NCBI GenBank assembly: GCA_020721445.1
Contig: DYMU01000005.1
Location: 1-64,000, forward strand
Direction of reading: 5' to 3'
DNA: 64,000 nucleotides
From: Gemmobacter nectariphilus
GTDB taxonomy: Bacteria > Pseudomonadota > Alphaproteobacteria > Rhodobacterales > Rhodobacteraceae
The notes beneath the pieces are model-generated. The model saw only the letters and a list, made by a program, of their open reading frames with translations, made no database searches and was not told the origin of the DNA. Made by a program: the position numbers and the translations under genes. This document shows positions 1-14,049 of this stretch, piece by piece (position 1 is the stretch's first letter; the number at the start of each line of letters is the position of its first letter).

Positions 1-16
1 GAATGCCCGGATCAGA

Positions 17-148
17 TCAGCAATGGCAGGAGGGGGGCGGCGTCGCGCTTACGTTAAGCTCAAGAGAGATACGGTGCAACAGTTCATGGTTTGTGGTCCA
101 GCAAGCAATTTGTGCCACATCAAAACGTGCCAGGTCCATGACGGCCAT
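17..148 (-). CDS. Small ORF coupled to GTA g15 stop (hypothetical)
   Basis: A 43-codon open frame whose ATG overlaps the TGA of the g15 gene by one base (TGATG), the same coupling used between other genes of this cluster. The predicted peptide starts MAVMDLARFDV and ends in a Pro/Cys-rich tail. I do not recognise it. It has the low G+C of the adjoining 3' half of g15. It could be a real short downstream gene, the remnant of a longer one, or chance. The position right behind g15 is its only support. Confidence 0.3.
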   Translation of the reverse strand: MAVMDLARFDVAQIACWTTNHELLHRISLELNVSATPPPSCHC

Positions 149-3100
149 CAAAAAACACGCAGTGAATTCGAACCTCCGAAGCCATAACCAGTTGAGATTT
201 GCGCGACCTCTACAGCGAAGGACTCTGGGCAGCCATCCTCAAGTTGCATGTGATGCAGATATGCGAATCTTGGTTCGTTTACCTCATAAAACTTAAGAAT
301 CAATCCCGACAGGCTTCTAATTGTCACCCCATAGGCTTCTGCCTCCTCCGCCAATGGAACTTCAAAGCTGCTCCAAGTATCACTGTCCACCCTGCTTCGC
401 CGCTTCCAGCAAAACTCAATATTTCCCAACGCATCTGTCTCAGAACGCAGATGGACGACAGAAAGTGGACGCAACCCGTTGCCCTTGAACGCACGACTGT
501 AGTGAAGATCACCGTTCACATCATCGCCGGATGAACGATTTGACACTCTGTAATGCCGCTCCAGATTTCTTGCCGTTGCAGGATGGTCAATCTGCTCAAT
601 CGATGAGTCCAACAGAACGACGCGACTTCCCGCCGGCCAGGCCGTGCTTAAACTACGATCAGTGCCCAATTGACCTCGCAAGCGCAGACGGAGATCGAAC
701 GCCATTTCATCCACGATCGACGCCTCTTGGAACTGAAAGATTTCCCAAGCGTCAGGATCGCCATTTCCGATAGCAAGCAGATTTGTTCCGTTCAGCATCA
801 GAAACTCGCTCACCGATGATAGACCCGCACCCAGCAGCTTCACCGTAAGTGCTGGCCCCTGGTCGATCAAACCTGATCGAGCCGGAAGCAGTTCGTTCAA
901 TGTAAACCCAACCGTCGACCTTTGGTTTACAACCGTGTTCAAGGCATAATTGCTATCTTGGTTTGATGACCAAACAATTGCACTTTCCTTCCAAGGGTCG
1001 CCACTGATGGCTACATATGGCGCAGATGGACTATCTGCCTCGCGAATGATCGGTATATCCAGCCACATTGCGAGCAAATCACCAGCTACACTATGTGGTT
1101 TCCACTTTGTAGCTTCATGCACGTCCTGTTGTGATTGATAACAAGTAGGCTCGATCTGGACTGCGTAGATTGATTTGGTTTCCGACCACTCCAATCGATT
1201 GACGCGGAAGTATTTCTTGCTGATTTCAATTGTGCACCCAATCTGGATATCCACCGAAGAAAGTGGTAATTGACATTGAAGTCCTTCGCGTCCGATTTCC
1301 ACTTCAGCGACCCATGTCTCAACGATGGACTTTCCACGGTCCATTGGCAAAGATATCTGGACCTCGACTTCAGACGCACCAATGCTTTTGTCGCCGCTGC
1401 GTGTTGATTCGGCGATCGCCGTCGAAAAGTCCCCATCTGCTGAATAATAAATCAGACGCTGGATGGTGCCACTCTCGGATCTTGCAGTTCTCGAGAATTC
1501 AAGGCTATCTGAATTATCTTTGGCCAGAACTACGATGTCTTCAGAGAAACTCGCGAATGAACTGATAACACGCGACTTGAAGGTTGCAATCCCCTGCTGA
1601 TCGAAAAAGTCAAAAAAGCTTGTCATAGATAATGGCTGGATCTGTGATCTTGCCGTCGCCGTCTGGGAAACAATATATCCCTGTGTCAAACCGTAGAGCA
1701 GAGAATGATCGATATTCATCACATCGCTAGATTGACAAATCTCTTGAACCACCCGACCAAGTGGAACCGATGAAGATCTCCCATTCAACCAATGCCCCGC
1801 AAAGTAGTTCAATCCATCGGCCCAAAGCTCAGAACTTCTTGGAAAGTCCGGGTAGGGACGCGCATCCCACGCCCAGGCATGGCTGTGTGCAAGGTCAATC
1901 ATTGAACCAGCATACAGATCTGACATCAAGTTGTTCTTGGGATCCGACCAATGCTGCGAAATGGCAGAATAGTATTGAAGCTGGATATAGTCGTCCCTCG
2001 ACCCGTTTGAGCCGAGTGGCAGGGATGATTCAGAAGAAAATTGATCTACAAATTTGTTCGGCTCATTGGTCGCATTGTCAACTGCGGCGCAACCATACTC
2101 GGTAAATCGAATAGGCTTGGACCTTGGAATCCAATCTGTTGGTATTTCGTTTTTATGTCCGTCTATTCTGTTGAAATGTTGATGGGACCACCATGACGGA
2201 AAGTCCTTGAAACGAAATACCCAGCTTTCGCCATAATAAGAATCGATGATCGGCCTTCTTTGCTGCGCGATCCGTGCCTCATTGCTTTCGTAAAACCAGT
2301 CGTAACCTTCGCCGCCCATGATGTTTGAAAGCAGGTACTCTATGTTATACACTGACCCCCAGGCTGCATCGCAGTTCTGATTTCCATGCCGCCAGTCTGA
2401 CAATGGCATGTAATTGTCAATACCAACAAAATCAATATTGTGATCTGCCCAAAGCGGATCGAGGTGAAAGTAGACATTACCATCACGATGGTATCCGAAA
2501 TACTCTGACCAATCTGCAGCATAGCTGATCTTGGTTTCATTACCAAGTATCGAACGCACCTCTGCTGCCAGATCGATCAGCGCGGCAACCGCCGGGAATG
2601 AGTGATTGGCTCCCCTGATTTGCGTGACTCCCCGCAGTTCCGATCCAATGCAAAAGGCATCCACACCCCCCGCGAGGCGACAAAGATGCGCATAGTGCAG
2701 AATAAAGCGTCGAAATCCCCAATCCTCCGGACCGTTGTAATAGACGTCCGCGCCCACTGCCAAAAAATCAGACGCTGCCGCTGCACCAAAAAACTTGGCG
2801 ACGGCAAGCTCGGCATCATTGGTGCCATCAATCGTGCCCGCGCGGCCGGGCGCGACAGGCAGCGTGATCCTCCCACGCCAGGGCATGATCGGCTGCTCGT
2901 CGGTATCGGAATACGGATTAGGCAGCGTATTTCCTGCAAGTTGATCCATCAACACAAATGGATAGAACATGACGGACTGTCCGCCGTCGTGAATGGCTTT
3001 TATCGCTTGAATGACGGATGCATCTGCCGGGGTTCCGCCATAGATTGACTGTCCGTCTCTGCGCGGAACTTCCAGCGCTTCCATGCGGCCAATTCCCCCG

Positions 3101-4044
3101 GCGCGCCAGGGCATCTTGTGGCTCTCCGCTGCGACAGCCTCGACCTTCGGCCTGATGTCGCACTCTGTGCATCGCAGGTCATTGCCAAACCAGGACACCA
3201 CCAGCGACACAGCACCGCAATTCGGCAATTCCCGGCGCAATTGCGTCAGCGATGTCACCAGATCGGGCTCGTCCGAAGGCGAGTTCACGTTCACGGGTCT
3301 CGACAAGCCAAACTCATCGGTTTTACTGACACGCTGGGTCGCAAGGGCGTATTCACCCGTTCCCGGTATCAGCGCCACGCCCCTGATACAGTCCTGCAAA
3401 TCCGGGACCGTTTCCGCCTCTGACCCCTGGCCGCGCCGCATGACCTCAAAGCTCAACTGAGGGACGCGGTTGCCAAAAGACGAAAGGTCAAGGTTTTCGA
3501 TCACCACATAGGCGATCCCCCGATAGGACGGGGTATCTTCCAGGCCCAGATATGCCGCCAGCCCCGGGTCTGGCAGTTGGTCTTCTGTCCCGGTGTAGAC
3601 GCTAAGATGCAGTTTCTTGGGCGCGATTTCATCGCCATCGGCCCAGATCCGACCGATACCAAGAATTTCGCCTTCGCACAGGGCAAGGGCCAGACTGACC
3701 GTATAAGAATAGCGCGTCACGGTTGGCCTCGGCGCCCCCTTTCCTCCGCCGCTGGTGGCGGTGATTTCCGTGAAGGGCGACGCCCAGATCACCTGGCCCG
3801 GCAAGCGAACCCGCCCCCAGCAGCGCGCAATCGGCGCACCATAGCCGGCGCCCATGATCTGGAACCTGTCCATCCGGCCGGTTTCCACGGGCTCTGAACC
3901 CGTCCCCATGATGCGCTGATCAATCAGCCGTCCGAACGCCGCCCCTGCAGCACGGCCAATGACGGCCCCCGAAAGCCCAAGCACGGTACCGCCAAAGCCC
4001 GCCCCAAGCGCCGCACCTGCGGCCGACAGAAGGATCGTCGCCAT
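148..4044 (-). CDS. GTA g15: megatron/host-specificity tail tip protein
   Basis: A 1298-residue protein closing the GTA tail operon, about the size of R. capsulatus g15. In that particle the protein forms the tail-tip 'megatron' used for envelope contact and DNA delivery. The N-terminus is a Gly/Ala-rich hydrophobic stretch (about residues 1-40). The middle carries the GTA TIM-barrel-like region with the readable segments VGIDNYMPLSDW and FTEYGCAAVDN. The C-terminal half is beta-rich tail-fibre-like sequence. Its ATG directly follows the g14 TAA. From about codon 450 onward the DNA becomes visibly AT-richer than the rest of the cluster, suggesting recombination in the distal part. The frame is open throughout, so it is probably functional. 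Confidence 0.93.
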   Translation of the reverse strand: MATILLSAAGAALGAGFGGTVLGLSGAVIGRAAGAAFGRLIDQRIMGTGSEPVETGRMDRFQIMGAGYGAPIARCWGRVRLPGQVIWASPFTEITATSGGGKGAPRPTVTRYSYTVSLALALCEGEILGIGRIWADGDEIAPKKLHLSVYTGTEDQLPDPGLAAYLGLEDTPSYRGIAYVVIENLDLSSFGNRVPQLSFEVMRRGQGSEAETVPDLQDCIRGVALIPGTGEYALATQRVSKTDEFGLSRPVNVNSPSDEPDLVTSLTQLRRELPNCGAVSLVVSWFGNDLRCTECDIRPKVEAVAAESHKMPWRAGGIGRMEALEVPRRDGQSIYGGTPADASVIQAIKAIHDGGQSVMFYPFVLMDQLAGNTLPNPYSDTDEQPIMPWRGRITLPVAPGRAGTIDGTNDAELAVAKFFGAAAASDFLAVGADVYYNGPEDWGFRRFILHYAHLCRLAGGVDAFCIGSELRGVTQIRGANHSFPAVAALIDLAAEVRSILGNETKISYAADWSEYFGYHRDGNVYFHLDPLWADHNIDFVGIDNYMPLSDWRHGNQNCDAAWGSVYNIEYLLSNIMGGEGYDWFYESNEARIAQQRRPIIDSYYGESWVFRFKDFPSWWSHQHFNRIDGHKNEIPTDWIPRSKPIRFTEYGCAAVDNATNEPNKFVDQFSSESSLPLGSNGSRDDYIQLQYYSAISQHWSDPKNNLMSDLYAGSMIDLAHSHAWAWDARPYPDFPRSSELWADGLNYFAGHWLNGRSSSVPLGRVVQEICQSSDVMNIDHSLLYGLTQGYIVSQTATARSQIQPLSMTSFFDFFDQQGIATFKSRVISSFASFSEDIVVLAKDNSDSLEFSRTARSESGTIQRLIYYSADGDFSTAIAESTRSGDKSIGASEVEVQISLPMDRGKSIVETWVAEVEIGREGLQCQLPLSSVDIQIGCTIEISKKYFRVNRLEWSETKSIYAVQIEPTCYQSQQDVHEATKWKPHSVAGDLLAMWLDIPIIREADSPSAPYVAISGDPWKESAIVWSSNQDSNYALNTVVNQRSTVGFTLNELLPARSGLIDQGPALTVKLLGAGLSSVSEFLMLNGTNLLAIGNGDPDAWEIFQFQEASIVDEMAFDLRLRLRGQLGTDRSLSTAWPAGSRVVLLDSSIEQIDHPATARNLERHYRVSNRSSGDDVNGDLHYSRAFKGNGLRPLSVVHLRSETDALGNIEFCWKRRSRVDSDTWSSFEVPLAEEAEAYGVTIRSLSGLILKFYEVNEPRFAYLHHMQLEDGCPESFAVEVAQISTGYGFGGSNSLRVF

Positions 4045-4524
4045 TTACACACTCTCCTCTGGGAAACGATAGATGGCCGCAATCTTGCGGGCCCAAGGGC
4101 CAGAAAGCGGGCTTTCCACGACGCCATGCCCGGTATAGGCGTGCACGAACGTCGGGATCGGAACGCGCGACACCACAACGCCAAGGTGTTTTGCGACCGA
4201 CCCTGCCCGCATCCGGAACAACAGGATATCGCCGGGCTCTGGGCAAAGCTCCTGCTTTCTGACAAGCCAGGTATTGGCGACGGTCATCAGCACCTCGTCC
4301 TGACTTGGTTCTGACCAATCCATTGTATAGGGCGGCGGAACCACAGGCTCGGGTCCGACCACGGCGCGCCAGATACCCCTGATCAGGCCAAGGCAATCGG
4401 TGCCTGCGCCAAGCGCCGACATCTGGTGGCGGTACGGCGTTCCCAACCATAGCCGGGCCTGCGTGACGATCCGGTCGGATCGCATGTCCATCTGGACGTT
4501 CGTCTGGGACAGATCGGTTTTCAC
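4045..4524 (-). CDS. GTA g14: NlpC/P60 cell-wall peptidase
   Basis: A 159-residue peptidase of the GTA tail. It probably cuts peptidoglycan during DNA delivery. The motif WLGTPYRHQ followed by GTDCLGLIRG supplies the catalytic Cys, and KHLGVVV/FVHAYTG supply the His region of the NlpC/P60 fold. I chose the GTG at 4524. It has an AGAGGTG ribosome-binding sequence 5-6 bases upstream and lies 10 bases after the g13 TAG. An in-frame ATG lies further upstream at 4596 but would overlap g13. It is followed immediately by g15. Confidence 0.9.
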   Translation of the reverse strand: MKTDLSQTNVQMDMRSDRIVTQARLWLGTPYRHQMSALGAGTDCLGLIRGIWRAVVGPEPVVPPPYTMDWSEPSQDEVLMTVANTWLVRKQELCPEPGDILLFRMRAGSVAKHLGVVVSRVPIPTFVHAYTGHGVVESPLSGPWARKIAAIYRFPEESV

Positions 4525-4534
4525 AAGATCACCT

Positions 4535-5389
4535 CTACCTGTTGCGGGCGGGGTTTGACCGCAACCAGTCGTCCCCCGGAACATGCGGGAAGCCACGAAA
4601 ATTCAGGAAGTTGCCAAACTTCGCTTTGCACGCGGATGCACTCTTGTCGCAGCCGGCAGTCAGGCGCAGGGTGTCACCAGGCGCCGGGAACAGGCCAAAC
4701 GGCTGCCAAAGCTCGATGACACGCCCACCGTCCTGTTCGTGGTCGCGGCGAATGAACCTGACCTGATCATGACCTGTGCCAGAGGTCAGCATCGCCAGTC
4801 CATGCGCGAACCAACCATCGGGCAAATGCGGATAAGGTGGCACGATCAGCACGCGACCCTGGTCGATGTGCAAAAGGGTGGCGTTCACCGTCCTGTCCAT
4901 CACCAACAGGTCAATTCCACACCGGTCATCACCAAGGCTGGCATTGCAATCGGGATGATAGACCTTGCCGGTCGGGATATTCAGCCGTTCTGCCAATCCA
5001 CGCAGTTCCACGCTGAAAGCGCCACCCTTGCGGGTAATCTCGCCAAATGTGCCGCGAAACAGAATGTCGCGTTGCTCGACATCGGCCCAGTTGACCATGA
5101 AAATGGTCACCTCGGCATCGTCATATCGACCGGCCTGAATATCCTCTTCGTTGATTGCGGCATCGGACAGCGCGCCAAACGCCTCGCTGTTATCAACCGC
5201 CATGCCGGTGGATTGCTCCAACGCCCGCGCGGTAAGGCCGGTGCGCGCGGCAAACATCACGCCCTCAAAGGTCAGATCCTCATCATGATCCGCAAACCCC
5301 AGCACAACCCCATCCTTGCGTCGCACCCTCCAGGCGCGGCACACCGTGGTCGAGCCGGTTTTCAAATGTGCATCCAGTGTGCTGACCAT
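4535..5389 (-). CDS. GTA g13: tail hub protein (DUF2163)
   Basis: A 284-residue hub protein of the GTA baseplate, DUF2163 family. Four cysteines stand out: a pair spaced by eight residues (CNASLGDDRC) and a C-terminal pair spaced by six (CDKSASAC). They are followed by KFGNFLNFRGFPHVPG. This resembles the Cys set that binds a metal cluster in tail-tip proteins such as lambda gpL and, as I recall, the R. capsulatus hub. The start ATG overlaps the g12 stop as TGATG. Confidence 0.92.
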   Translation of the reverse strand: MVSTLDAHLKTGSTTVCRAWRVRRKDGVVLGFADHDEDLTFEGVMFAARTGLTARALEQSTGMAVDNSEAFGALSDAAINEEDIQAGRYDDAEVTIFMVNWADVEQRDILFRGTFGEITRKGGAFSVELRGLAERLNIPTGKVYHPDCNASLGDDRCGIDLLVMDRTVNATLLHIDQGRVLIVPPYPHLPDGWFAHGLAMLTSGTGHDQVRFIRRDHEQDGGRVIELWQPFGLFPAPGDTLRLTAGCDKSASACKAKFGNFLNFRGFPHVPGDDWLRSNPARNR

Positions 5390-6021
5390 CAGACCCGAAC
5401 CTCCACAACCGGCACGTCCGGCACTCCGCCGGCGTTGAACGACGCCACCGAGGTCATGATGGCATCGGTGTCGAACCGCACCGGAACGTCGAATTCGAAC
5501 CCGGCATAGACCGTGACGCCAATATCTGGCGGCACCGCAAAGGTGATCTCGCCGGTCGCCAGGTTGACCTCGAACTCCTGACCCTCCACCTTCGGGTCAC
5601 GCGCAACCGAGATCATCACGCTGCCTGCAACCGGCTTGGTGATGCGCCGGGTATAGGTCTCAAGGCCCGAGCGATAGGTTTTGCTCAGGGCAAAAACCAC
5701 AGTAACACCGTCCCCTGTCCCGATCTCCTGATCGATGTGCGACGGTTTTTGCGACGGTGGGCACGATTTGTAGTCAGACCAGTCTTTCCAGCGAAACCCG
5801 TGCATCCGCCCCCGCCGCGCTTCAAAGAACGCAATCAGCCGGTCGACATCATCCAGCGTCCGCAGCCCGGCCCCCGCCTCATAGCGCCGGCGCGAATGGG
5901 CCCAGGGCGTGTTGCGTTCCTCGAACCCATTGGCCAGGGTCACCACTTCGGTGCGCCGCTCGGGGCCCCCGACCGAACCAAAACTCAGGTTTGCCGGAAA
6001 TCTGATCTCATGGAAGGCCAT
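5389..6021 (-). CDS. GTA g12: distal tail protein (DUF2460)
   Basis: A 210-residue DUF2460 protein. It begins MAFHEIRFPANLSFGSVGGPERRTEV in type (family opening FHEVRFP) and contains the typical FEARRGRMHGFRWKDW segment. In the R. capsulatus particle this gene product joins the tail tube to the baseplate. Length is normal for the family. It is coupled to g13 by a one-base stop/start overlap and lies 12 bases behind g11. Confidence 0.92.
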   Translation of the reverse strand: MAFHEIRFPANLSFGSVGGPERRTEVVTLANGFEERNTPWAHSRRRYEAGAGLRTLDDVDRLIAFFEARRGRMHGFRWKDWSDYKSCPPSQKPSHIDQEIGTGDGVTVVFALSKTYRSGLETYTRRITKPVAGSVMISVARDPKVEGQEFEVNLATGEITFAVPPDIGVTVYAGFEFDVPVRFDTDAIMTSVASFNAGGVPDVPVVEVRV

Positions 6022-6033
6022 CTGCCTGCTCCC

Positions 6034-6687
6034 TTACCGGTTTCGTTGACCACGGGCCAAAGCGCGCGAAGCCTGCGCTGCAATCTGGGTCCGGCTGCGC
6101 TGAAACCCCTCGACATCCGGGGTCTGGATGTTCATCACCACCGTCACCGGGCGCGCGCCGCCTGACGCCTGCACGCCCAGCCGACCATCGGCCCCGCGTG
6201 CCAAAGGCATGATCGCCTCCGGCCCCGCTTCGCCCATCAGCCCAGCACCACCGCGCATCGGAAACGAGGTCGGGCTCGACACAACCCCGCCCTTGGCAAA
6301 AGGCATCACCCGGCCTTGGGAAAACGCGCCCCCATTCTTGAACGGCAAAAGACCGCTCAGGACCGAGTCGATCCCTTCCGCCACCAATCCGCCGACGGCC
6401 CCTTGAACCGGCTTCATCGCCACGTTGTAGACGCCGCTGATCATAGACTGGGCGACCATGCGCAGCGCATCCGACAGCTTCATGCCGTCAAAGATCAGGC
6501 CGTCAAACGCCCGCCGCAAGCCACCGCCGATCCCGTTGGTCAGGCTGTTCACCTCGCGCCCGGTAAACAGCATGGTTTCCTGCATGCGGGCCAACTCGCC
6601 CTCAAACGCAACCACCATTGCGCTGGACGCCCCCAGCGTTGCCTCAAGCGCCGCCACCTGGTCTGCCAGCTCTTCGATCTGTGCCAT
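6034..6687 (-). CDS. GTA g11: short tape measure protein
   Basis: A 217-residue protein that sets tail length; GTA tails are short, so this tape measure is tiny beside phage ones. The N-terminus is helical (EELADQVAALEATLG). A Gly-rich C-terminal part holds GGAFSQGRVMPFAKGG and GLMGEAGPEAIMPLARGADG, classic tape-measure C-terminal motifs. I prefer ATG 6687 over GTG 6690 because AGGAG then sits seven bases upstream. It overlaps the end of g10.1 by 44 bases. Confidence 0.92.
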   Translation of the reverse strand: MAQIEELADQVAALEATLGASSAMVVAFEGELARMQETMLFTGREVNSLTNGIGGGLRRAFDGLIFDGMKLSDALRMVAQSMISGVYNVAMKPVQGAVGGLVAEGIDSVLSGLLPFKNGGAFSQGRVMPFAKGGVVSSPTSFPMRGGAGLMGEAGPEAIMPLARGADGRLGVQASGGARPVTVVMNIQTPDVEGFQRSRTQIAAQASRALARGQRNR

Positions 6688-6886
6688 CACGGCTCTCCTG
6701 TGCTGTGTCGGGAAAGGCTGCCGAAAGTTCGGCCAACCGGGCCCGCGTCAAAGGCGGGCTTGCTGCCTCTGCCCCCATCATGATCCTCAATTCCACCGGG
6801 CTCAGCCGCCAGAACACTGCAGGCTCCAGCCGCAGCCCATGCAGTCCAACCCGGATCAGCCCCGGCCAGTCGATGCCATCCGTCAT
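6644..6886 (-). CDS. GTA g10.1: tail assembly chaperone-like small protein
   Basis: An 80-residue protein starting MTDGIDWPGLIRVGLHGLRL, with the segment FWRLSPVELRIMMG, matching the small gene (rcc01693 type) between g10 and g11 in Rhodobacter GTA clusters. The ATG lies 10 bases after the g10 stop, and the 3' end overlaps g11. Its probable role is tail assembly, together with g10, in the place where lambda-like phages encode a frameshifted chaperone pair. Confidence 0.85.
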   Translation of the reverse strand: MTDGIDWPGLIRVGLHGLRLEPAVFWRLSPVELRIMMGAEAASPPLTRARLAELSAAFPDTAQESRDGTDRRAGRPGGGA

Positions 6887-6896
6887 CTGTTGCCCG

Positions 6897-7217
6897 TCAT
6901 GTCTCACCGGGCAGGGCAAAGGCCCGCGCCAGCAATTCGGCGGCCAACCTGGCTGCCTCCATCGGCCCGCCCCCGATCTCGACCGACAGCAGGTCTTCGG
7001 CCCGCCCGGTCCATCCTCCCCCCCGCAACCCGGCAACCAGCAGGGCCACGACATCGCGCGTCGAAAACCGCCCGGCCTCAAACCGTTCAACCAGGTCGAT
7101 CAAAGATCCGGCAGCCAGCGCCGCTTCCAGCTCGGCCAATGCGCCCAGGGTCAACTTTGCCACATGGCGTCGGCCATCCAGCACCACCGCCACCTCGCCC
7201 GCCCAAGGGTTCGCCAT
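6897..7217 (-). CDS. GTA g10: tail tube assembly chaperone-like protein
   Basis: A 106-residue protein of the GTA TAC-like family (transfers-agent orfg10), with LGALAELEAALAAGSLIDLVERF as its most typical region. It probably acts as a tail assembly chaperone. ATG 7217 overlaps the g9 stop (TGATG). A GTG one codon upstream is possible. No clear Shine-Dalgarno is visible, consistent with translational coupling to g9. Confidence 0.88.
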   Translation of the reverse strand: MANPWAGEVAVVLDGRRHVAKLTLGALAELEAALAAGSLIDLVERFEAGRFSTRDVVALLVAGLRGGGWTGRAEDLLSVEIGGGPMEAARLAAELLARAFALPGET

Positions 7218-7630
7218 CACAGCGCCACAAAAGTCAGTGCCCCGGCCGAGGCCAGCGACAGCTCATACGTCGCCTCGCCATTGTGGCTTCCGGCATATTC
7301 GACGGCGGTAATCTGGAACGGCCCTTCCACCACGCCGAAATCCGGGATGATCACCTGAAAATCCGGCACCTCTCCGTCAAAGAAAATCTGCCGCGCCCGC
7401 TCATCGGTGTTGGCGTCGCGAAAAACGCCCGATCCCGAGATGGACGCCGACTTCACCCCGGAACCGCCCAACAATTCGCGCCAGCCGCCTGCACTTTCCA
7501 GACTGGTCACATCCACCGTTTCCGCATTGAAACTGATCCGCGTGGCACGCAGACCCGCCACCGTCTCAAACGTGCCATCGCCCGTCAGATCGACCTTCAA
7601 CAACAGGTCCTTACCGCTTTGAACCGCCAT
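7217..7630 (-). CDS. GTA g9: major tail tube protein
   Basis: A 137-residue major tail protein. The opening MAVQSGKDLLLKVDLTGDG and the segment AETVDVTSLESAGGWRELL are diagnostic of GTA/lambdoid TP901-1-like tail tube subunits. I start at ATG 7630 rather than three codons earlier because the MAxQxGKDLLLK opening is conserved in GTA g9. It lies 35 bases downstream of g8. Confidence 0.93.
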   Translation of the reverse strand: MAVQSGKDLLLKVDLTGDGTFETVAGLRATRISFNAETVDVTSLESAGGWRELLGGSGVKSASISGSGVFRDANTDERARQIFFDGEVPDFQVIIPDFGVVEGPFQITAVEYAGSHNGEATYELSLASAGALTFVAL

Positions 7631-7665
7631 TCCGAACACTCCGATTATTTTGGCCTATCAGGCCG

Positions 7666-8064
7666 TTAAAGCTCGACCCTCGCGCGAAAGGTCAGGTCTA
7701 CCCGCCGCACGTCGCCATCTTTCAACCGCTTGGCCACTGCCTTGACAAAGGCGATGCCAACCACCCGGCCGCGGGTCAGCGGTGGCTGGGCCGCCACCAG
7801 GGCATCCGACACCGCAACAGCCACGACCTTGGCCGCCAGAAAACCGGTGGCATCCGAAATCACGCTGATCGAAAACCGATGCTCGGCTCCATCGCCACTT
7901 TTGTCAGACCGGTCCAGCACGTCTTCCGGGCCGATCAGCACGAAGGTGCCGCTGCCGCCACCCGGTGGCAACGCGTCGACGATGGCCACCCCGGCCAAGG
8001 CCGGGCTTGCCGCCAAAACGCCATAGATCGCGGCCTGCAAGGCCGCCGCTGCGCCATAGCTCAT
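7666..8064 (-). CDS. GTA g8: tail terminator (DUF3168)
   Basis: A 132-residue DUF3168 protein opening MSYGAAAALQAAIYGVL and ending in VDLTFRARVEL, both typical of GTA g8. It probably caps the tail tube and mediates head-tail joining. Its ATG overlaps the g7 stop (ATGA). Confidence 0.92.
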   Translation of the reverse strand: MSYGAAAALQAAIYGVLAASPALAGVAIVDALPPGGGSGTFVLIGPEDVLDRSDKSGDGAEHRFSISVISDATGFLAAKVVAVAVSDALVAAQPPLTRGRVVGIAFVKAVAKRLKDGDVRRVDLTFRARVEL

Positions 8065-8399
8065 GCTGGCTCCTCCTCCCGCGCAAAGCAGGTCAGATAA
8101 TGTCCCGCCGCGTCGCGTTCGGTAACGGCAAGGATGCGAAACAGCCGCCCGCCCTCGCGCAGCCTTTGCCCCGGAGCCGGGCGTCGATCAGCCCCCTCCG
8201 GCGCTCCGCGCACGGTGATGCGATAAGGAATGCTCGACAGCGTCACTTCCTCGCCCCCGGTATCCCGCCCCGCGCCGGGTAGAACTTCGGCCCACAGCGT
8301 TCCGATTTCCGCCCAGGATGTGGCATAGCCACCCGCCCCGTCCGGGGTCTGCACCGGCCGTTCCAGAACCAGAAGCCGGGTCAGATGAACCGCCTTCAT
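8061..8399 (-). CDS. GTA g7: head-tail adaptor/stopper
   Basis: A 112-residue phage head-tail joining protein. The segments VLERPVQTPDGAGGYATSW and REGGRLFRILAVTERDA match the SPP1 gp16-type head closure family. I start at ATG 8399, which overlaps the g6 TGA (ATGA). An in-frame start further upstream would run deep into g6. Confidence 0.9.
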   Translation of the reverse strand: MKAVHLTRLLVLERPVQTPDGAGGYATSWAEIGTLWAEVLPGAGRDTGGEEVTLSSIPYRITVRGAPEGADRRPAPGQRLREGGRLFRILAVTERDAAGHYLTCFAREEEPA

Positions 8400-8995
8400 A
8401 CCCCGCCTCCGCCAAGCACCCGCACCGTGCGCCACCGCTCGATCAGCGACTGAACCGTCAGGGGCAAGGCCGCACCGCGTTGCCCGCCGTCATGCCTGCG
8501 TTCATAGAATTCAGATGCCAACAGCAGCACCGCCTGCGCCAGATCGGCTGGAACCGCGGCCCAACTGGTGCCAAAGCCGGCATCGAACACAATCTCCACC
8601 GCGCCGCCCTCGGAAATGCACGGCAACGCCCGTCCGATCCCCAGCAGGCGCGGCCGCGCCATGTCGGCCTCAAGCCGATACAGATCAGCGGCCAGGACCG
8701 AGGGCACGCCCAACGCGTCCAGCAGCGTCACCGATACCAGTGCCGAAACCGGCGCCATCGGCAAGGCCTGCGCCGCGCCACGCCACCGCAACAGCCGCAA
8801 CAGAAAGCGCCGCGCCAGCAGCGCCTTGCCCGTTCGCCCTTCGATGGTGGCAATCGCGGCCCGCAAATGCGCAGTTATCAACCCGTTCTGCATCCCGTCA
8901 TCGGCAAAGCCGGTGCCAAGACGCAGATGATCCTTCATCGCCTGCATCGGCAGCGCCTCATCGGGCACCGCGGTTTGCTCGGTCAACATCATCAT
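8396..8995 (-). CDS. GTA g6: head-tail connector adaptor
   Basis: A 199-residue connector protein with the opening LTEQTAVPDEALP and MKDHLRLGTGFADD, matching g6/gp15-like phage adaptors. The C-terminal helix LAQAVLLLASEFYERR is also typical. Three consecutive ATG codons occur at the start; the first is taken. A 154-base gap with stem-loops separates it from the capsid gene. Confidence 0.9.
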   Translation of the reverse strand: MMMLTEQTAVPDEALPMQAMKDHLRLGTGFADDGMQNGLITAHLRAAIATIEGRTGKALLARRFLLRLLRWRGAAQALPMAPVSALVSVTLLDALGVPSVLAADLYRLEADMARPRLLGIGRALPCISEGGAVEIVFDAGFGTSWAAVPADLAQAVLLLASEFYERRHDGGQRGAALPLTVQSLIERWRTVRVLGGGGV

Positions 8996-9110
8996 CTCTC
9001 TCCGATTGCCCCATCAGCGTCAAAGGTCGGGCGCGCGCCCCACACCGCTCGAACGGAGGGGGGGAGCAGCTAGACGGCATGGGTTTTCATGCGCGCGCCC
9101 GAGGGGTGGC

Positions 9111-9134
9111 CCGGGGGGGAAGCACATCCCCCGG
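9111..9134 (-). promoter_or_regulatory. Stem-loop in the GTA capsid-g6 intergenic gap
   Basis: A 7-bp G+C stem (CCGGGGG pairing with CCCCCGG) lies about 15 bases downstream of the capsid stop codon. A 12-base GC palindrome occurs at about 9034-9045. These lie in the only long gap (8996-9149) between structural genes. They could be a partial terminator or an RNA stabiliser that raises capsid over tail expression. No U-run follows, so a strong intrinsic terminator is unlikely. Confidence 0.4.
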
Positions 9135-9149
9135 ACATGCCGCACTGTC

Positions 9150-10346
9150 TTAGGACAGGGCGAACTTCAGCAGCTTGATCGCCGCAAAGTCGGACACATC
9201 GCCGCCCACGCGCTTGGACGCATAGAACAGGACGTGCGGCTTGGCGCTGAACGGGTCACGCAAAACCCGCAGGTCGGGACGTTCCGCAATCGTGTAGCCG
9301 CTGGCAAAATCGCCAAAGGCAATCGCATAGGCGTTGTTGGCGATATCGGGCATGTCTTCGGCGATCAGCACCGCATAGCCCATCAGTCGTGCAGGCTCGC
9401 CCGCCGCCAGACCATCCGACCACAGGAACCGACCATCGGCATCCTTCATCTTGCGCACGGCCCCGGCGGTTTTCGAGTTCATCACAAAGGTCGCATTGGC
9501 GCGGTAGGTGGCATCCAGCGCATAGACCAGATCCACCACCGCATCCGCCGGATTGGTGCCATTGAAATCGCCCGCAACGCCGGTCGCGATATAGCCAAGG
9601 TTGCCCCAGGTCCAGGTTGCCTCTGCAACCTTGGTGTGGGTCAGAAAGCCTTTGGGCTTGTCCACCCCGTCACCGGCCACAAACGACGCGGCTTCGGCGC
9701 GGGCAAACTTGTCGGCAATCCGCCCCGCCAGCCAGCCTTCCACGTCAAAGGCGCTGTCATCCAGCAGGCGCTGGCTGGCTTTCGGCATGGCCGACAACTC
9801 GTGCAGCGGGATCGAGATGCGCTCGATCATCGGTGTGGCGCTTTCCACCATCGCGCCCGCTTCGGTCGCCCAACCCGAGCCGACGTCGGAGTGGTCGATC
9901 AACACGTCGAACGAAGACGCCTCGACCTGCACGACATTGGCCACCCCACGGATTGACGAGGTCGATTTCAGGCTTGAGCGGATCATTTCGGCGGTCGCCG
10001 GGTCCACCAGATAGCCACCCTCTGCGGCAACGGCGGTATTCAGCGCCTTGCCTTCCAGCACCAGGCCGCGCAGGCCATCGTCATCGCCCGACCGCAGATA
10101 GGCGTCAAAGGCCTTCTGATGCGGCGCTTCCACAGTCGTGGCGGCCGACAGGGCCGGACGGCCATAGCTCATCGTCTTTTGGTTCAACATGGTCAGTCGC
10201 TCTTCCTGATGTTGCAGCGCTTGTTTCACTTCGGTCTGAAAGCTAATAATTTCTTTCAAAAATCCGGCCATGGCAGATTTCACCTCCACCCCCGGATGCA
10301 GGGCCGCAGGGAAAGCTTCCCCGGCCCGAGCCTCTCTCTCGGTCAT
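9150..10346 (-). CDS. GTA g5: HK97-fold major capsid protein
   Basis: A 398-residue major capsid protein, the same length I recall for R. capsulatus g5. It carries an N-terminal scaffold-like helix (about residues 25-65, QTEVKQALQHQEERL), then the HK97 fold with typical motifs (YLVDPATAEMIRSSLKSTSSIR, ETPxMIERISIPLHELSAMPKASQRLLDDS). ATG 10346 is preferred over GTG 10352: AGGAG then lies five bases upstream. The N-terminal part is presumably removed by the g4 protease. Confidence 0.95.
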   Translation of the reverse strand: MTEREARAGEAFPAALHPGVEVKSAMAGFLKEIISFQTEVKQALQHQEERLTMLNQKTMSYGRPALSAATTVEAPHQKAFDAYLRSGDDDGLRGLVLEGKALNTAVAAEGGYLVDPATAEMIRSSLKSTSSIRGVANVVQVEASSFDVLIDHSDVGSGWATEAGAMVESATPMIERISIPLHELSAMPKASQRLLDDSAFDVEGWLAGRIADKFARAEAASFVAGDGVDKPKGFLTHTKVAEATWTWGNLGYIATGVAGDFNGTNPADAVVDLVYALDATYRANATFVMNSKTAGAVRKMKDADGRFLWSDGLAAGEPARLMGYAVLIAEDMPDIANNAYAIAFGDFASGYTIAERPDLRVLRDPFSAKPHVLFYASKRVGGDVSDFAAIKLLKFALS

Positions 10347-10380
10347 CGTCACTCCTGATGTTTGAACGAAAGCCGGGGCG

Positions 10381-10938
10381 TTACCGCTCGGCCAGTTGTT
10401 GGCGCGCGTCCGTCAGGATCGCCGCCAGATCACGCCAGTGCCGGTCATCGTCATCGTCCGATTTCGCCTGCACCCGCGCTTCGGAAAGCATCGGGAATGT
10501 CACCAACGACACCTCCCAAAGCTCCAGCTCTGACAAAAGCCGCTGTCCCTTGCCATCGCGTTCCGCCTTCAGCGTGCGATAGCCGATCGACAGACCGTCA
10601 ATCGCCCCCGCCGCCAACAGGGCCGCCGCCTCGCGGCCCTTTTCCACCTCGGTCAACAGCCGCCCCTTGACCCACAGGCCAATGGCGTCCTCGCGCACCT
10701 CGTCCCAGATGCCGATCGGTTGTGCTGGGTCGTGCTGCCACAGCATCTTGACCTTCGCCCCCTTCGCTGCCAACCGCTTCAGGCTGGCCGCATAGGCACC
10801 GCTCTGCACCACATCGCCGCCCTGATCCTTGACGCCAAACAGGCTGGCATAGCCTTCGACACCGCTGCCATCGGTCACCTTCAGCGCGGTCTCCGGTGCC
10901 AGGTATTTGCGCTCGGGTGCGCCATAGTCCGTGTTCAT
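10381..10938 (-). CDS. GTA g4: prohead protease
   Basis: A 185-residue HK97-family prohead maturation protease. Visible motifs are VEGYASLFGVKDQGGDVV, MLWQHDPAQPIGIWDEVRED (containing the catalytic His) and AIDGLSIGYRTL (containing the catalytic Ser). GAGGTGAAGCG precedes the ATG. It is followed by the capsid gene, as expected for protease-capsid pairs. Confidence 0.94.
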   Translation of the reverse strand: MNTDYGAPERKYLAPETALKVTDGSGVEGYASLFGVKDQGGDVVQSGAYAASLKRLAAKGAKVKMLWQHDPAQPIGIWDEVREDAIGLWVKGRLLTEVEKGREAAALLAAGAIDGLSIGYRTLKAERDGKGQRLLSELELWEVSLVTFPMLSEARVQAKSDDDDDRHWRDLAAILTDARQQLAER

Positions 10939-10942
10939 CGCT

Positions 10943-11188
10943 TCACCTCAATGCGGCTTGCAAAAGTGCCTCGGCCCCCTGCGCCAGCAGGAACGCCGCA
11001 ACCCCGTAAACGCCCAGCCAGATGCGTTTTTCCAGCCGCTCCAACACGGCATCAATCTGGCCAAGCCGATAGTCCAGCGCCGCCCAACGCTCTTCGGACA
11101 CGCGTTCATTCGCCTCGATCCGCGCGGCGGCGGCGTCGAAACTGTCATACAGGAACCGTGACCCTCCAGGCGATCTGGGCGGTGTCAT
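10943..11188 (-). CDS. GTA g3.5: small head-assembly protein
   Basis: An 81-residue protein at the g3.5 position. It has a charged helical N-terminal half (RIEANERVSEERWAALDYRL) and a C-terminal hydrophobic segment of about 20 residues (VYGVAAFLLAQGAEALLQAAL) that could span a membrane. Its ATG overlaps the portal stop (ATGA). The exact function in the family is unclear. Confidence 0.85.
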   Translation of the reverse strand: MTPPRSPGGSRFLYDSFDAAAARIEANERVSEERWAALDYRLGQIDAVLERLEKRIWLGVYGVAAFLLAQGAEALLQAALR

Positions 11189-12375
11189 TCATTCTCGGCC
11201 AGTGCCGGCAGCCCCAGCAGCCGACGCTTTTCCGCCACCGTCAGAAACGCGGCAGCCCCTACCCGCGCCCATTGCTGGTCACGCTCCATCGCCAGGGCGG
11301 GGATCTGGTCAAGGTCCACCTTCACCTCCACCGCCTCGCCGGCAAACCCTGCCAGCCAATGGCTGACATCCGCCATCACCTTGGCCGCCAGGGGCAGCAC
11401 GGTCAGCCGATAGAATGCCCGGTTGGCCTCTTGGTAATTGGCATAGGTCGCATCCCCCGGTATCCCCAGCAGCATCGGCGGAATGCCAAAGGCGATGGCA
11501 ATCTCGCGGGCTGACGCTTCCTTGGTCTTCTGAAACTCCATGTCGCTGGGCGAAAACCCCATCGGCTTCCAGTCCAAGCCCCCTTCCAGCAGCATCGGCC
11601 GCCCGGCATTGCGCGCGCCCTGATGGTTGGCCTCGATCTCACCCACCAGCCGGTCATACTGGTCGCTGGACAAAGATCCCTGCCCGTCCACACCCTTGTA
11701 GACAATCGCCCCCGACGGCCGCGCCGCATTGTCCAGCAAAGCTTTCGACCAGCTTGACGCTGCATTGTGCACGTCCACCGCCGCCGCCGCCGCCTGCATC
11801 GGCGACAGGCCATAGTGGTCATCCTGCGGATGGAACATCTTCAGATGACAGACCGGCTTGGCCTCGCCGCGCATGTCAAACCGATGCGCCCGCCCACCCA
11901 CGGTATAGTCATAGGCCACCGGCCAGCCATCGGCACCGGGCACCAAGGACATCCGGTCCGACCGCAGCACATGCAATTCGCCCGGAACCCGTGCCATCCC
12001 CGGCACCGCCTCCAGATAGGCATTGCCGGTCAGCATCAGATAGCCATAGACCGCCTCCAGAAACTCGGCCCGGCCCTGCGCGCCATTGGGCCGGTTGATC
12101 ACCGCAAGCACCGGGTGCTGCTCATAACGCCGCTCGGCATCCTGGCAGACCAGCGGCAGCGCCGCCGCCGCCTCGGCCACCAGCTTCACTGCCCGAAACC
12201 CGACCGGGTTGGCCATGAACCCGGTCCGTGTCAAAGACGCCGCATCGCGCGGGCTCCACTTCACCCTCCCCGACGCCCCCCAAGCCGCAACCCGCCCGGT
12301 GGCACTGGCTTTCTTTTCCATAACCATCTCGGGCGCGGGCGACCCATCGCCCCGCCGCAGGAAATTGAACACCAT
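11185..12375 (-). CDS. GTA g3: portal protein
   Basis: A 396-residue HK97-type portal, the ring through which DNA enters the capsid. Family signatures visible are PVGFRAVKLVAEAAAALPL, FLEAVYGYLMLTGNAYLE, FDMRGEAKPVCHLKMFHP, and the FGIPPMLLGIPGDATYANYQEANRAFYRLTVLP type C-terminal stem region. It follows the large terminase by 38 bases. Confidence 0.95.
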   Translation of the reverse strand: MVFNFLRRGDGSPAPEMVMEKKASATGRVAAWGASGRVKWSPRDAASLTRTGFMANPVGFRAVKLVAEAAAALPLVCQDAERRYEQHPVLAVINRPNGAQGRAEFLEAVYGYLMLTGNAYLEAVPGMARVPGELHVLRSDRMSLVPGADGWPVAYDYTVGGRAHRFDMRGEAKPVCHLKMFHPQDDHYGLSPMQAAAAAVDVHNAASSWSKALLDNAARPSGAIVYKGVDGQGSLSSDQYDRLVGEIEANHQGARNAGRPMLLEGGLDWKPMGFSPSDMEFQKTKEASAREIAIAFGIPPMLLGIPGDATYANYQEANRAFYRLTVLPLAAKVMADVSHWLAGFAGEAVEVKVDLDQIPALAMERDQQWARVGAAAFLTVAEKRRLLGLPALAENE

Positions 12376-12413
12376 CTTTTCCGATCTCCGTTTGCGGGGT
12401 CACCCCCGATGTC

Positions 12414-13763
12414 TTAGCGCCCCAACGACCGCACTTGCGGCTGCGCCTGCACCGTCAAGGCAGGCTCGATCATCGTCTCGAACAGCGCCCAGACCAGTGC
12501 ATCCACCCGGTCAGGGCTGCCCTTGCCCTGAAACCCGGTGCGGGTCATCTGGCACATCTGTTCCTCCAGCGCCGCCAGACCGCGCCTGTGCATCACGCGG
12601 CCCTGCTCATACAGTGCCGCCACCGGCTCGGCCCGCGCCACCTTGCCCCGCGTGGCGTTGACCGCGCGATAGGGCACCAGCACATCTTGCTGGCGGATCA
12701 TCTGCTCCACCAACTCGCCGCCCTGATTGACCTCGGCCACGATGCGGTCCGCCCCGTGGCGCTGGCAGGCCGCCACCGCCGCCCGCGCCCATTCGGTCGA
12801 GGTGCCACGCATGCTGGCATCCTCCAGCACCACCGCCCGCCACCGGCTGACCGGGCCTTCGGTGGCAACCCCCACCACCACGATGCCGCATTCGTCCGAC
12901 CCCGGCCTGCTGGTCACCGGGGGGTCCACCGCCACCACGATCCGGCTCAATCGCTCCGGCTCGGCTCCGCGTGCCCCCTCCAGCATGGCGGTCGTCCACA
13001 GCGCCCCGTTGAGATCGTCGATCAACTTGCCCTCCAGCTCTTGCCGCCCCAGCCGGGTGCCGCCGTAACGGGTCTCGACCTCTTCCAGAAACGACTTCGC
13101 CAGATAGGCCCGGTTTGCCTCGGTCGGCGCATGGGTCAGCACGGTAGAGGGGTTTTTCACAATCGCCTTCAACACCGGCACCGATTGCGGGGTTGTCGTC
13201 ACTACCTGCTGCGGGTTTCCCCCCAGCCGCAGCGCAAACTGCAACTGGTCCCAGGTGTCTTGGCCCTTCTTCCACTTCGCCAACTCATCCACCCACGCCG
13301 CATCGAACTGCGGCCCGCGCAGACTGTCGGGGTCATGCGCCGAAAACAGTTGCGCCGTGGCCCCGTTGGGCCAGTTCAGCATCCGCCGCGTTGCGTTCCA
13401 TTCTGGCCTGCGGTCTGGCGGCGAACACGCCAGCAGCCCGCTGTCGCCAAACACCATCACTTCACGCGCCTGATCCAGCGTTTCGGCCACCAGCGCCACC
13501 CGGCTCGCCCTGCCGGGGTCGAGCGGGCCAGAGCCTTCAACCATGCTCCGCACCCACTCGGCCCCGGCCCGCGTCTTGCCTGCCCCACGCCCGCCCATGA
13601 TGACCCATGTCTTCCATGCGCCTTCGGGGGGCAACTGGTGCGGCAGCGCCCAGAATTCGAACATCCACGGCAGCGCGATCAGCGCCGCGTCGGACAAACC
13701 ACCCAGGAACTCATCAATACCCTCCGGCGTCGCGGAGGAGAGCCAGACGGCGCCCGATTTCAT
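12414..13763 (-). CDS. GTA g2: large terminase (packaging ATPase/nuclease)
   Basis: A 449-residue large terminase if started at ATG 13763. Walker A GGRGAGKT falls at residues 57-64 and Walker B AAWVDE at about 155-160. The nuclease part has VVAVDPP, EVNQGG and SPDRVDALVWAL, typical of DNA-packaging terminases. I chose 13763 because homologues begin shortly before the ALPWMFEFWALPHQLPPEG segment; the frame is open upstream into g1. The overlap with g1 is 50 bases. GTA terminases package host DNA by headful without sequence specificity. Confidence 0.93.
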   Translation of the reverse strand: MKSGAVWLSSATPEGIDEFLGGLSDAALIALPWMFEFWALPHQLPPEGAWKTWVIMGGRGAGKTRAGAEWVRSMVEGSGPLDPGRASRVALVAETLDQAREVMVFGDSGLLACSPPDRRPEWNATRRMLNWPNGATAQLFSAHDPDSLRGPQFDAAWVDELAKWKKGQDTWDQLQFALRLGGNPQQVVTTTPQSVPVLKAIVKNPSTVLTHAPTEANRAYLAKSFLEEVETRYGGTRLGRQELEGKLIDDLNGALWTTAMLEGARGAEPERLSRIVVAVDPPVTSRPGSDECGIVVVGVATEGPVSRWRAVVLEDASMRGTSTEWARAAVAACQRHGADRIVAEVNQGGELVEQMIRQQDVLVPYRAVNATRGKVARAEPVAALYEQGRVMHRRGLAALEEQMCQMTRTGFQGKGSPDRVDALVWALFETMIEPALTVQAQPQVRSLGR

Positions 13764-14049
13764 CGCGCGCGGTGTCAAAGTCGAGGGCACCTGCCCCGAC
13801 AGCCCCGGCAACCGATTTGCGGAGTTTGTCAACTTTGTTCCTCTCTTCCATAAGCAGCCGGACAAAACCCAGCAGCATGTCGGTGGCCTTCTTGGCCTCC
13901 GTCACCTGCTCGAACTTCCCGGCCTCGACCTCGTCAATCACCTGCGACAGCTTCAACGCCGCCCGCTCCAGGTGCCTCTCGGCCATCCCCAGCAGGTCGT
14001 TCGGCGCCTCGGTCTTGTCTGCGTTCGTTGCAGTGAAGTTGATTGTCAT
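13714..14049 (-). CDS. GTA g1: small terminase
   Basis: A 111-residue protein opening MTINFTATNADKTEAPNDLL. It is mostly helical with a charged centre (MEERNKVDKLRKSVAGAV). This matches GTA g1, shown in Rhodobacter to act as a TerS lacking a specific DNA-binding domain. I used ATG 14049; the longer open frame upstream would run through the leader and promoter. It is the first gene of the cluster and overlaps g2. Confidence 0.9.
   Translation of the reverse strand: MTINFTATNADKTEAPNDLLGMAERHLERAALKLSQVIDEVEAGKFEQVTEAKKATDMLLGFVRLLMEERNKVDKLRKSVAGAVGAGALDFDTARDEIGRRLALLRDAGGY

What the first reader, a model, noticed from the sequence alone, without database searches (positions are those of the whole stretch)
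1..2700. Abrupt G+C drop inside GTA g15
The last two thirds of g15, and the small ORF behind it, are markedly AT-richer than the rest of the GTA cluster. By my count 1201-1260 has 27/60 G+C, and 3721-3780 in the same gene has 42/60. The switch lies around 2600-2800 (codons ~420-480). The distal part of the megatron/host-contact protein may have been exchanged by recombination. That would change host recognition of the particle while keeping conserved head and tail genes.
Basis: partly seen in the sequence, partly recalled or inferred. Interest (0 to 1): 0.65.

Follow-up and report, generated by a model that had tools for sequence, protein, structure and literature searches.

The report
AT-rich, fast-diverging half of megatron gene
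The last two thirds of the gene for the tail-tip protein of a bacterial gene-transfer particle are unusually AT-rich; this is an old trait of the group of bacteria rather than a fresh import, but part of the same stretch looks as if it was swapped with a close relative.

Summary
The drop is real: in g15 (megatron, window 148-4044, minus strand) G+C falls from 61% to 49% and GC3 from 69% to 50% near codon 417 (window ~2796); no 2.45-kb stretch starting beyond base 4000 falls below 58.7%. It is not the mark of a recent import. Nine of 14 same-genus relatives share it, 0 of 26 genomes of other genera do, and GC-rich g15 homologues sit in some of the same genomes.

Against the nearest relative, synonymous differences per site are 0.23 from g2 to codon 187, 0.44 to codon 553 and 0.74 (saturated) beyond, an outlier among 30 close pairs. 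The distal part, not the proximal one, conflicts moderately with the tree of other GTA proteins (p-AU 0.017-0.031).

I conclude: an old, lineage-specific AT-rich, fast-diverging distal megatron, plus a probable replacement beyond codon ~554 in this lineage or its sister. The sister is a metagenome-assembled genome whose contig ends inside g15, so chimeric assembly is not excluded.

The parts
148..4044 (-). g15, GTA megatron (baseplate multidomain protein), 1298 aa, last gene of the cluster
   Evidence: NCBIfam GTA_megatron 1604 bits, cut-off 800; only match in the genome
2797..4044 (-). GC-richer proximal part, codons 1-416, GC3 69%
148..2796 (-). AT-rich distal part, codons 417-1298 and stop, GC3 50%
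   Evidence: best GC3 split 2dlnL 45
2386..3483 (-). codons 188-553, intermediate synonymous divergence from G015 (0.443 per site)
   Evidence: change-point segmentation
1666..2385 (-). codons 554-793, saturated synonymous divergence from G015 (0.741 over the segment 554-800); probable replaced tract, its far end unknown because the G015 contig ends there
1840..2721 (-). GTA_TIM domain (PF13547), residues 442-735
   Evidence: 445.5 bits, cut-off 27
1189..1665 (-). Phage-tail_3 domain (PF13550), residues 794-952
616..915 (-). Rcc01698_C domain (PF23666), residues 1044-1143
4045..13865 (-). upstream GTA genes, labelled g14 to g2 by order (labels recalled), used as reference
   Evidence: homologues in the same order in relatives
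1..52 (.). repeat shared with the ends of contigs C8, C33, C34 and C51, 95 bases behind the g15 stop

Best explanation
Two things lie on top of each other. (1) Shown: in most of this genus the distal two thirds of g15 sit at a low G+C and diverge unusually fast at synonymous sites while the protein stays under purifying selection; this is an old, lineage-specific regime and not donor DNA that has yet to ameliorate. (2) Probable: since the window's lineage split from its nearest known relative, one of the two replaced the stretch from about codon 554 onward (perhaps also codons 188-553) by homologous recombination with an unsampled relative inside the genus. Inferred: the two are linked, because a tail-tip segment whose alleles are repeatedly exchanged, and too different to recombine freely with each other, would lose codon selection or GC-biased repair and drift towards A+T. 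Whether this changes which cells take up the particle is not shown.
For: Drop shared by 10 of 15 genus genomes (window included) and 0 of 26 others. Change-points of synonymous divergence at codons 188 and 554; dN rises with dS. Ratio 3.62 against a mean of 1.12 and a maximum of 1.58 in 104 other pairs. Rise of dS within g15 6.1-fold, others 0.2-2.5 apart from two saturated pairs, in 30 close pairs. Distal part, not proximal, conflicts with the tree of other GTA proteins. Raised synonymous divergence reaches into the unrelated convergent neighbour in G009/G011.
Against: No donor was found: G015 stays the window's nearest relative in the distal part as well (100/100). G015 is a metagenome-assembled genome with a contig end inside g15. 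In the trio G003/G009/G011 all three distances rise alike, as a local rate effect would give. The tree conflict could be attraction of long branches or of like composition; six-state recoding weakens but does not remove it. Pairs share branches, so the 104 and 30 are not independent trials. The link between exchange and A+T is untested.
Confidence: 0.55

Rival explanations
1. No exchange: the 3' end of the GTA operon is weakly expressed or weakly constrained in this genus, so codon selection is relaxed, GC3 drifts down and synonymous change is faster.
For: GC3 declines along the operon (head 79, g12-g14 69-76, proximal g15 67, distal 50 in the window). Close pairs of the genus show raised distal synonymous divergence in general.
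Against: A two-state mutation-selection model predicts only about 25% slower change at GC3 79% than at neutrality, against several-fold differences. The excess of the window/G015 pair over other genus pairs is not explained. The neighbouring gene is affected too.
Confidence: 0.22
2. Chimeric assembly: the end of the G015 contig joins g15 of two organisms, so the step at codon 554 is not biological. The composition regime would remain.
Against: Divergence rises in two steps, codons 188 and 554; the G015 piece is still the nearest to the window; composition is the same on both sides. None of this is decisive.
Confidence: 0.18
3. The genus took its distal g15 from an AT-rich donor, or the window's strain did so recently, and the composition is donor composition.
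For: A sharp intragenic step.
Against: Drop shared by diverged relatives with synonymous sites near saturation; genus is one clade for the distal part with 100/100 support; g15 homologues elsewhere in the same genomes are GC-rich.
Confidence: 0.03
4. Chromosomal position: g15 lies at the replication terminus, with local mutation towards A+T.
For: GTA clusters of Rhodobacterales lie near the terminus (PMC9836097, passages).
Against: In G009 the sampled GC skew changes sign between 808 and 880 kb, while g15 lies at 1,036 kb. Downstream ORFs differ between genus members although the drop stays. Only one genome was sampled for skew.
Confidence: 0.02

Closest known systems
RcGTA megatron Rcc01698 (g15) of Rhodobacter capsulatus
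   Same: Same family over the full length, last gene of the cluster, same Pfam domains.
Mosaic or diversifying receptor-contact proteins of tailed phages (recalled)
   Same: A tail-tip protein with a conserved proximal part and a distal part that diverges faster and seems exchanged.
   Different: Domain content is unchanged and the probable donor is a close relative; no binding data.
Exchange hotspots such as O-antigen loci (recalled)
   Same: AT-rich core, and raised synonymous divergence that fades into a housekeeping neighbour in one pair.
   Different: Here it is part of a single gene, and strain-level allele swapping has not been shown.

Membership tests
GTA megatron (g15) | Full-length match to the family model above its cut-off | tested here: met
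   NF048004.1, 1604 bits against 800, residues 1-1293
GTA megatron (g15) | Last gene behind the head-tail genes in one direction | tested here: met
   gene labels g2-g14 by order, recalled
GTA megatron (g15) | Protein is part of particles that transfer DNA | not testable with these tools
   Needs culture work
Recent import of foreign DNA | Composition deviates only in the recipient strain | tested here: not met
   9 of 14 relatives share the drop
Recombinant gene | The two parts have conflicting trees | tested here: inconclusive
   Distal part rejects a clade supported by six other GTA proteins (p-AU 0.017-0.031), proximal part does not; long branches and composition not excluded; G000+G015 sisters in both parts
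Recombinant gene | Step in synonymous divergence between close relatives | tested here: met
   one partner is a MAG
Recombinant gene | Donor lineage identified | tested here: not met
   No closer distal sequence in 15 genus genomes or the IMG/VR scans apart from an identical copy of the window
Diversifying host-recognition locus | Excess of amino-acid change over synonymous change | tested here: not met
   dN/dS about 0.1 in both parts for G000/G015; gene-wide averages only
Diversifying host-recognition locus | Different alleles change which cells bind or receive the particle | not testable with these tools
   Needs binding or transfer assays

The most novel reading that the evidence does not exclude
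The distal megatron is a recombining diversity island: a set of old alleles of the GTA tail tip, kept different by selection and swapped between species of this genus by homologous recombination, with AT-rich composition as the by-product of their small allele populations. GTAs would then diversify their own recipient range, as phages do, perhaps with DNA that GTA particles themselves carry.
Probability: 0.15. Interest if true: 0.75.

Novelty: new variant of a known kind. Interest (0 to 1): 0.42.

Why it matters
GTA clusters are usually treated as slowly evolving core-like genes. A gene-internal composition and divergence step that is strongest in one genus shows that the tail tip can follow a regime of its own, and warns against reading a G+C step as import without looking at relatives. 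If distal replacement is confirmed with strains, it gives a direct handle on how the recipient range of GTAs evolves.

Tried and rejected
Composition as evidence of recent import: rejected. Replication terminus: rejected for G009; matches to dif-like patterns inside g15 in G009 and G011 (loose patterns) were taken as chance and not followed. Amino-acid make-up of the domain as sole cause: the same protein family needs no low G+C in 26 genomes of other genera or in GC-rich homologues of the same genomes. Prophage-like donor: those homologues are GC-rich. IS66 as the repeat at the contig edge (guessed from recalled end letters): PF03050 had no match in the assembly, so the repeat is unnamed. Strain variants in IMG/VR: only an identical copy of the window turned up.

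Dropped rows; gene pairs with pS under twice pN, overlapping ORFs, pairs under 150 codons and genes starting at 1,032-1,052 kb of G009 were left out before the count of 236; clusters differing by at most two codons were merged (129 to 120), and pairs under 400 head codons or with head pS outside 0.05-0.34 were left out; dS ratios for pairs with pS of 0.74 or more are a ceiling and mean 'saturated' only. G017 and G018 left out of the alignment; two of 15 genus genomes (G007, G012) lack enough genes for the tree of other GTA proteins (13 used). One search printed only the 40 closest pairs; the output was cut in the middle. Searches failed part way (an error in my script; a thread setting) and were repeated; the tables that one search printed first are used. 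I left the odds as they were: the conflict favours exchange, the confounders remain.

Full report
What is there. The window begins at base 1 of contig C7. Bases 148-4044 on the minus strand encode a 1298-residue protein that matches the NCBIfam model GTA_megatron over residues 1-1293 (1604 bits, cut-off 800), with the Pfam domains GTA_TIM (442-735), Phage-tail_3 (794-952) and Rcc01698_C (1044-1143). It closes a run of ORFs in one direction that reaches to about 13.9 kb, with homologues in the same genus; the labels g2-g14 follow gene order and are recalled. It is the only match in the genome.

The composition step. G+C is 61.0% over 2700-4044 and 48.6% over 148-2600; the lowest 2450-base stretch that starts beyond base 4000 has 58.7%. 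The best single split of GC3 is codon 417 (window ~2796), 0.69 to 0.50. First and second codon positions fall too (64 to 54, 52 to 44), and the third-position drop runs through most amino-acid families. It sits on a gentler decline along the operon: head genes 79, g12 76, g13 69, g14 70, g15 codons 1-460 67, codons 481-1298 50. The 147 bases behind g15 have 55% G+C; about 52 of them also stand at the ends of four other contigs, so this is a repeat at an assembly edge, and no gene is evident.

Who shares it. The genome search returned 16 genomes of the genus; 15 have both parts of g15 and one has only a short match. Ten of the 15 (the window and nine of 14 relatives) show GC3 lower by at least 8 points in the distal part; of 26 fetched genomes of other genera (five of them from one genus) none does. 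In a wider set of 120 distinct clusters that includes IMG/VR contigs, 13 reach 8 points: ten from this genus and three from elsewhere (L193, L203, L176), so a milder form occurs outside it. In the tree of six other GTA proteins (g3, g5, g6, g9, g11, g12) the genus splits into two clades; both contain genomes with the drop and genomes without it. Eleven further g15-like loci in G001, G006, G011, G014 and G015 were examined: nine long ones have 65-70% G+C and no drop, two fragments 59 and 62%. In the 40 closest genus pairs listed, synonymous differences in the distal part are 0.63-0.87 per site, so no donor composition could have survived unaided. The low G+C is an old and maintained property of the GTA copy in this lineage.

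Trees. With 29 genomes the genus is one side of a branch for codons 1-460 (100/99) and for 481-1298 (100/100); G000+G015, G005+G006, G003+(G009+G011) and G007+G008 are well supported in both. Deeper in the genus there is conflict. The proximal tree joins G010 to G007+G008 (99/94), the distal tree does not, though its data do not reject it (p-AU 0.101). The six other proteins support G000+G015+G004+G014+G008+G010 as one clade (100/99). The distal part rejects this clade under LG+G4 (p-AU 0.031), under LG+C20 (0.017) and with six-state recoded residues (0.024); the proximal part does not (0.345, 0.40, 0.33). Along the distal tree the genomes line up much as their G+C does, and G008 and G010 are long branches, so attraction is a live alternative. 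This is a moderate conflict within the genus, not an exchange with another genus.

Divergence. Against G015, the nearest relative (97% identity over the six proteins), synonymous differences per site are 0.230 from g2 to g15 codon 187, 0.443 over codons 188-553 and 0.741 over 554-800 by change-point segmentation. dN rises with dS, dN/dS staying near 0.1, as expected of an older common ancestor rather than of relaxed selection on the protein. The ratio of nonsynonymous divergence in codons 554-785 to that in 1-441 is 3.62 (bootstrap 2.36-5.50) for this pair, and 1.12 on average (sd 0.12, maximum 1.58) in the other 104 genus pairs; pairs share branches, so these are not 104 independent trials. 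Among 30 close pairs from 120 clusters the rise of dS from proximal g15 to codons 554-785 is 6.1-fold here, itself at the edge of saturation; two pairs with L247 are at the ceiling (5.8 and 3.8), G009/G011 has 2.5, and the other 26 lie between 0.2 and 1.7. The weak point is that G015 corresponds to a metagenome-assembled genome (record JAFGXY010000031.1) whose contig stops at codon ~793. The window side is safe: an IMG/VR contig repeats window 148-12044 without a difference; whether it comes from the same reads is unknown.

A local regime beyond one event. In G009/G011, 236 background genes over about 420 kb have mean pS 0.340 (sd 0.066, maximum 0.63) and GC3 of at least 66%; g15 has pS 0.60 and GC3 53%. 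The convergent neighbour is a vitamin B12-dependent ribonucleotide reductase. Its two 300-codon blocks towards g15 have pS 0.55 and 0.52, reached by 1 and 2 of 169 background blocks; the far blocks have 0.39 and 0.43. Raised divergence thus seems to reach past the operon, as linkage would give. But in the trio G003/G009/G011 all three distances rise alike, as a local rate effect would give. With one genome per species I cannot separate these. A two-state model of codon selection predicts about a 25% lower rate at GC3 79%, too little for a several-fold difference. In a control genus of five genomes (ten pairs) distal g15 is about as divergent as g12-g14. In another group (G196, L219, L229 and others) divergence is already high from g12 on, so a fast tail tip is not special to this genus, while the low G+C mostly is.

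Position. The terminus is not the cause in G009: sampled GC skew changes sign between 808 and 880 kb and g15 lies at 1,036 kb. Downstream ORFs differ among genus members while the drop stays.

Function. [quoted passage not shown] By simple numbering the AT-rich stretch includes most of the peripheral domain, the central domain that docks to the tail, and the fiber-binding domain. It is thus not purely a host-contact part, and a change of host recognition remains open.

Print. Five searches of the held library list no paper whose title or printed abstract start reports a composition or divergence step inside g15. I read only passages of PMC7296036, PMC9836097, PMC7360931 and PMC10883770. PMC7360931 reports that GTA genes as a group do not differ in GC3 from the genome average, which a step inside one gene of one genus would not disturb.

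Verdict. A real, strong composition step. The composition-based claim of exchange falls; exchange of the stretch beyond codon ~554 is probable on other evidence. Interest is moderate.

Noticed in passing
1-52: The contig starts inside a repeat that also stands at the ends of contigs C8, C33, C34 and C51, 95 bases behind the g15 stop; it looks like the end of a mobile element, but PF03050 (IS66) has no match in the assembly.
   Followed up: partly
L219, L224, L229, L230, L247, L254 and genome G196: In this other group synonymous divergence steps up at g12: head genes 0.22-0.34, g12-g15 mostly about 0.6. The whole baseplate block diverges faster than, or has a history apart from, the head block.
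   Followed up: no
L193, L195, L196, L199, L203: Patchy synonymous divergence between GTA genes of close relatives (for example L195/L196: g13 0.03 but g15 proximal 0.40), which suggests recombination inside the cluster.
   Followed up: no
genome G006 (L063, L067, L069, L070, L071, L072): Six further g15 homologues at 41-43% identity in one genome, all 68-70% G+C, probably prophages.
   Followed up: partly
L210, L211, L214, L288: IMG/VR proviruses of near kin are only 9.2-9.7 kb long and, judged by their length and the place of g12 or g3, stop before g15; the trimming may follow the composition step.
   Followed up: no
genome G028, C1:3026994-3030874: g15 matches in two frames that meet at residue 477/478, with two stop codons inside the first match: a broken or frameshifted megatron gene.
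   Followed up: no
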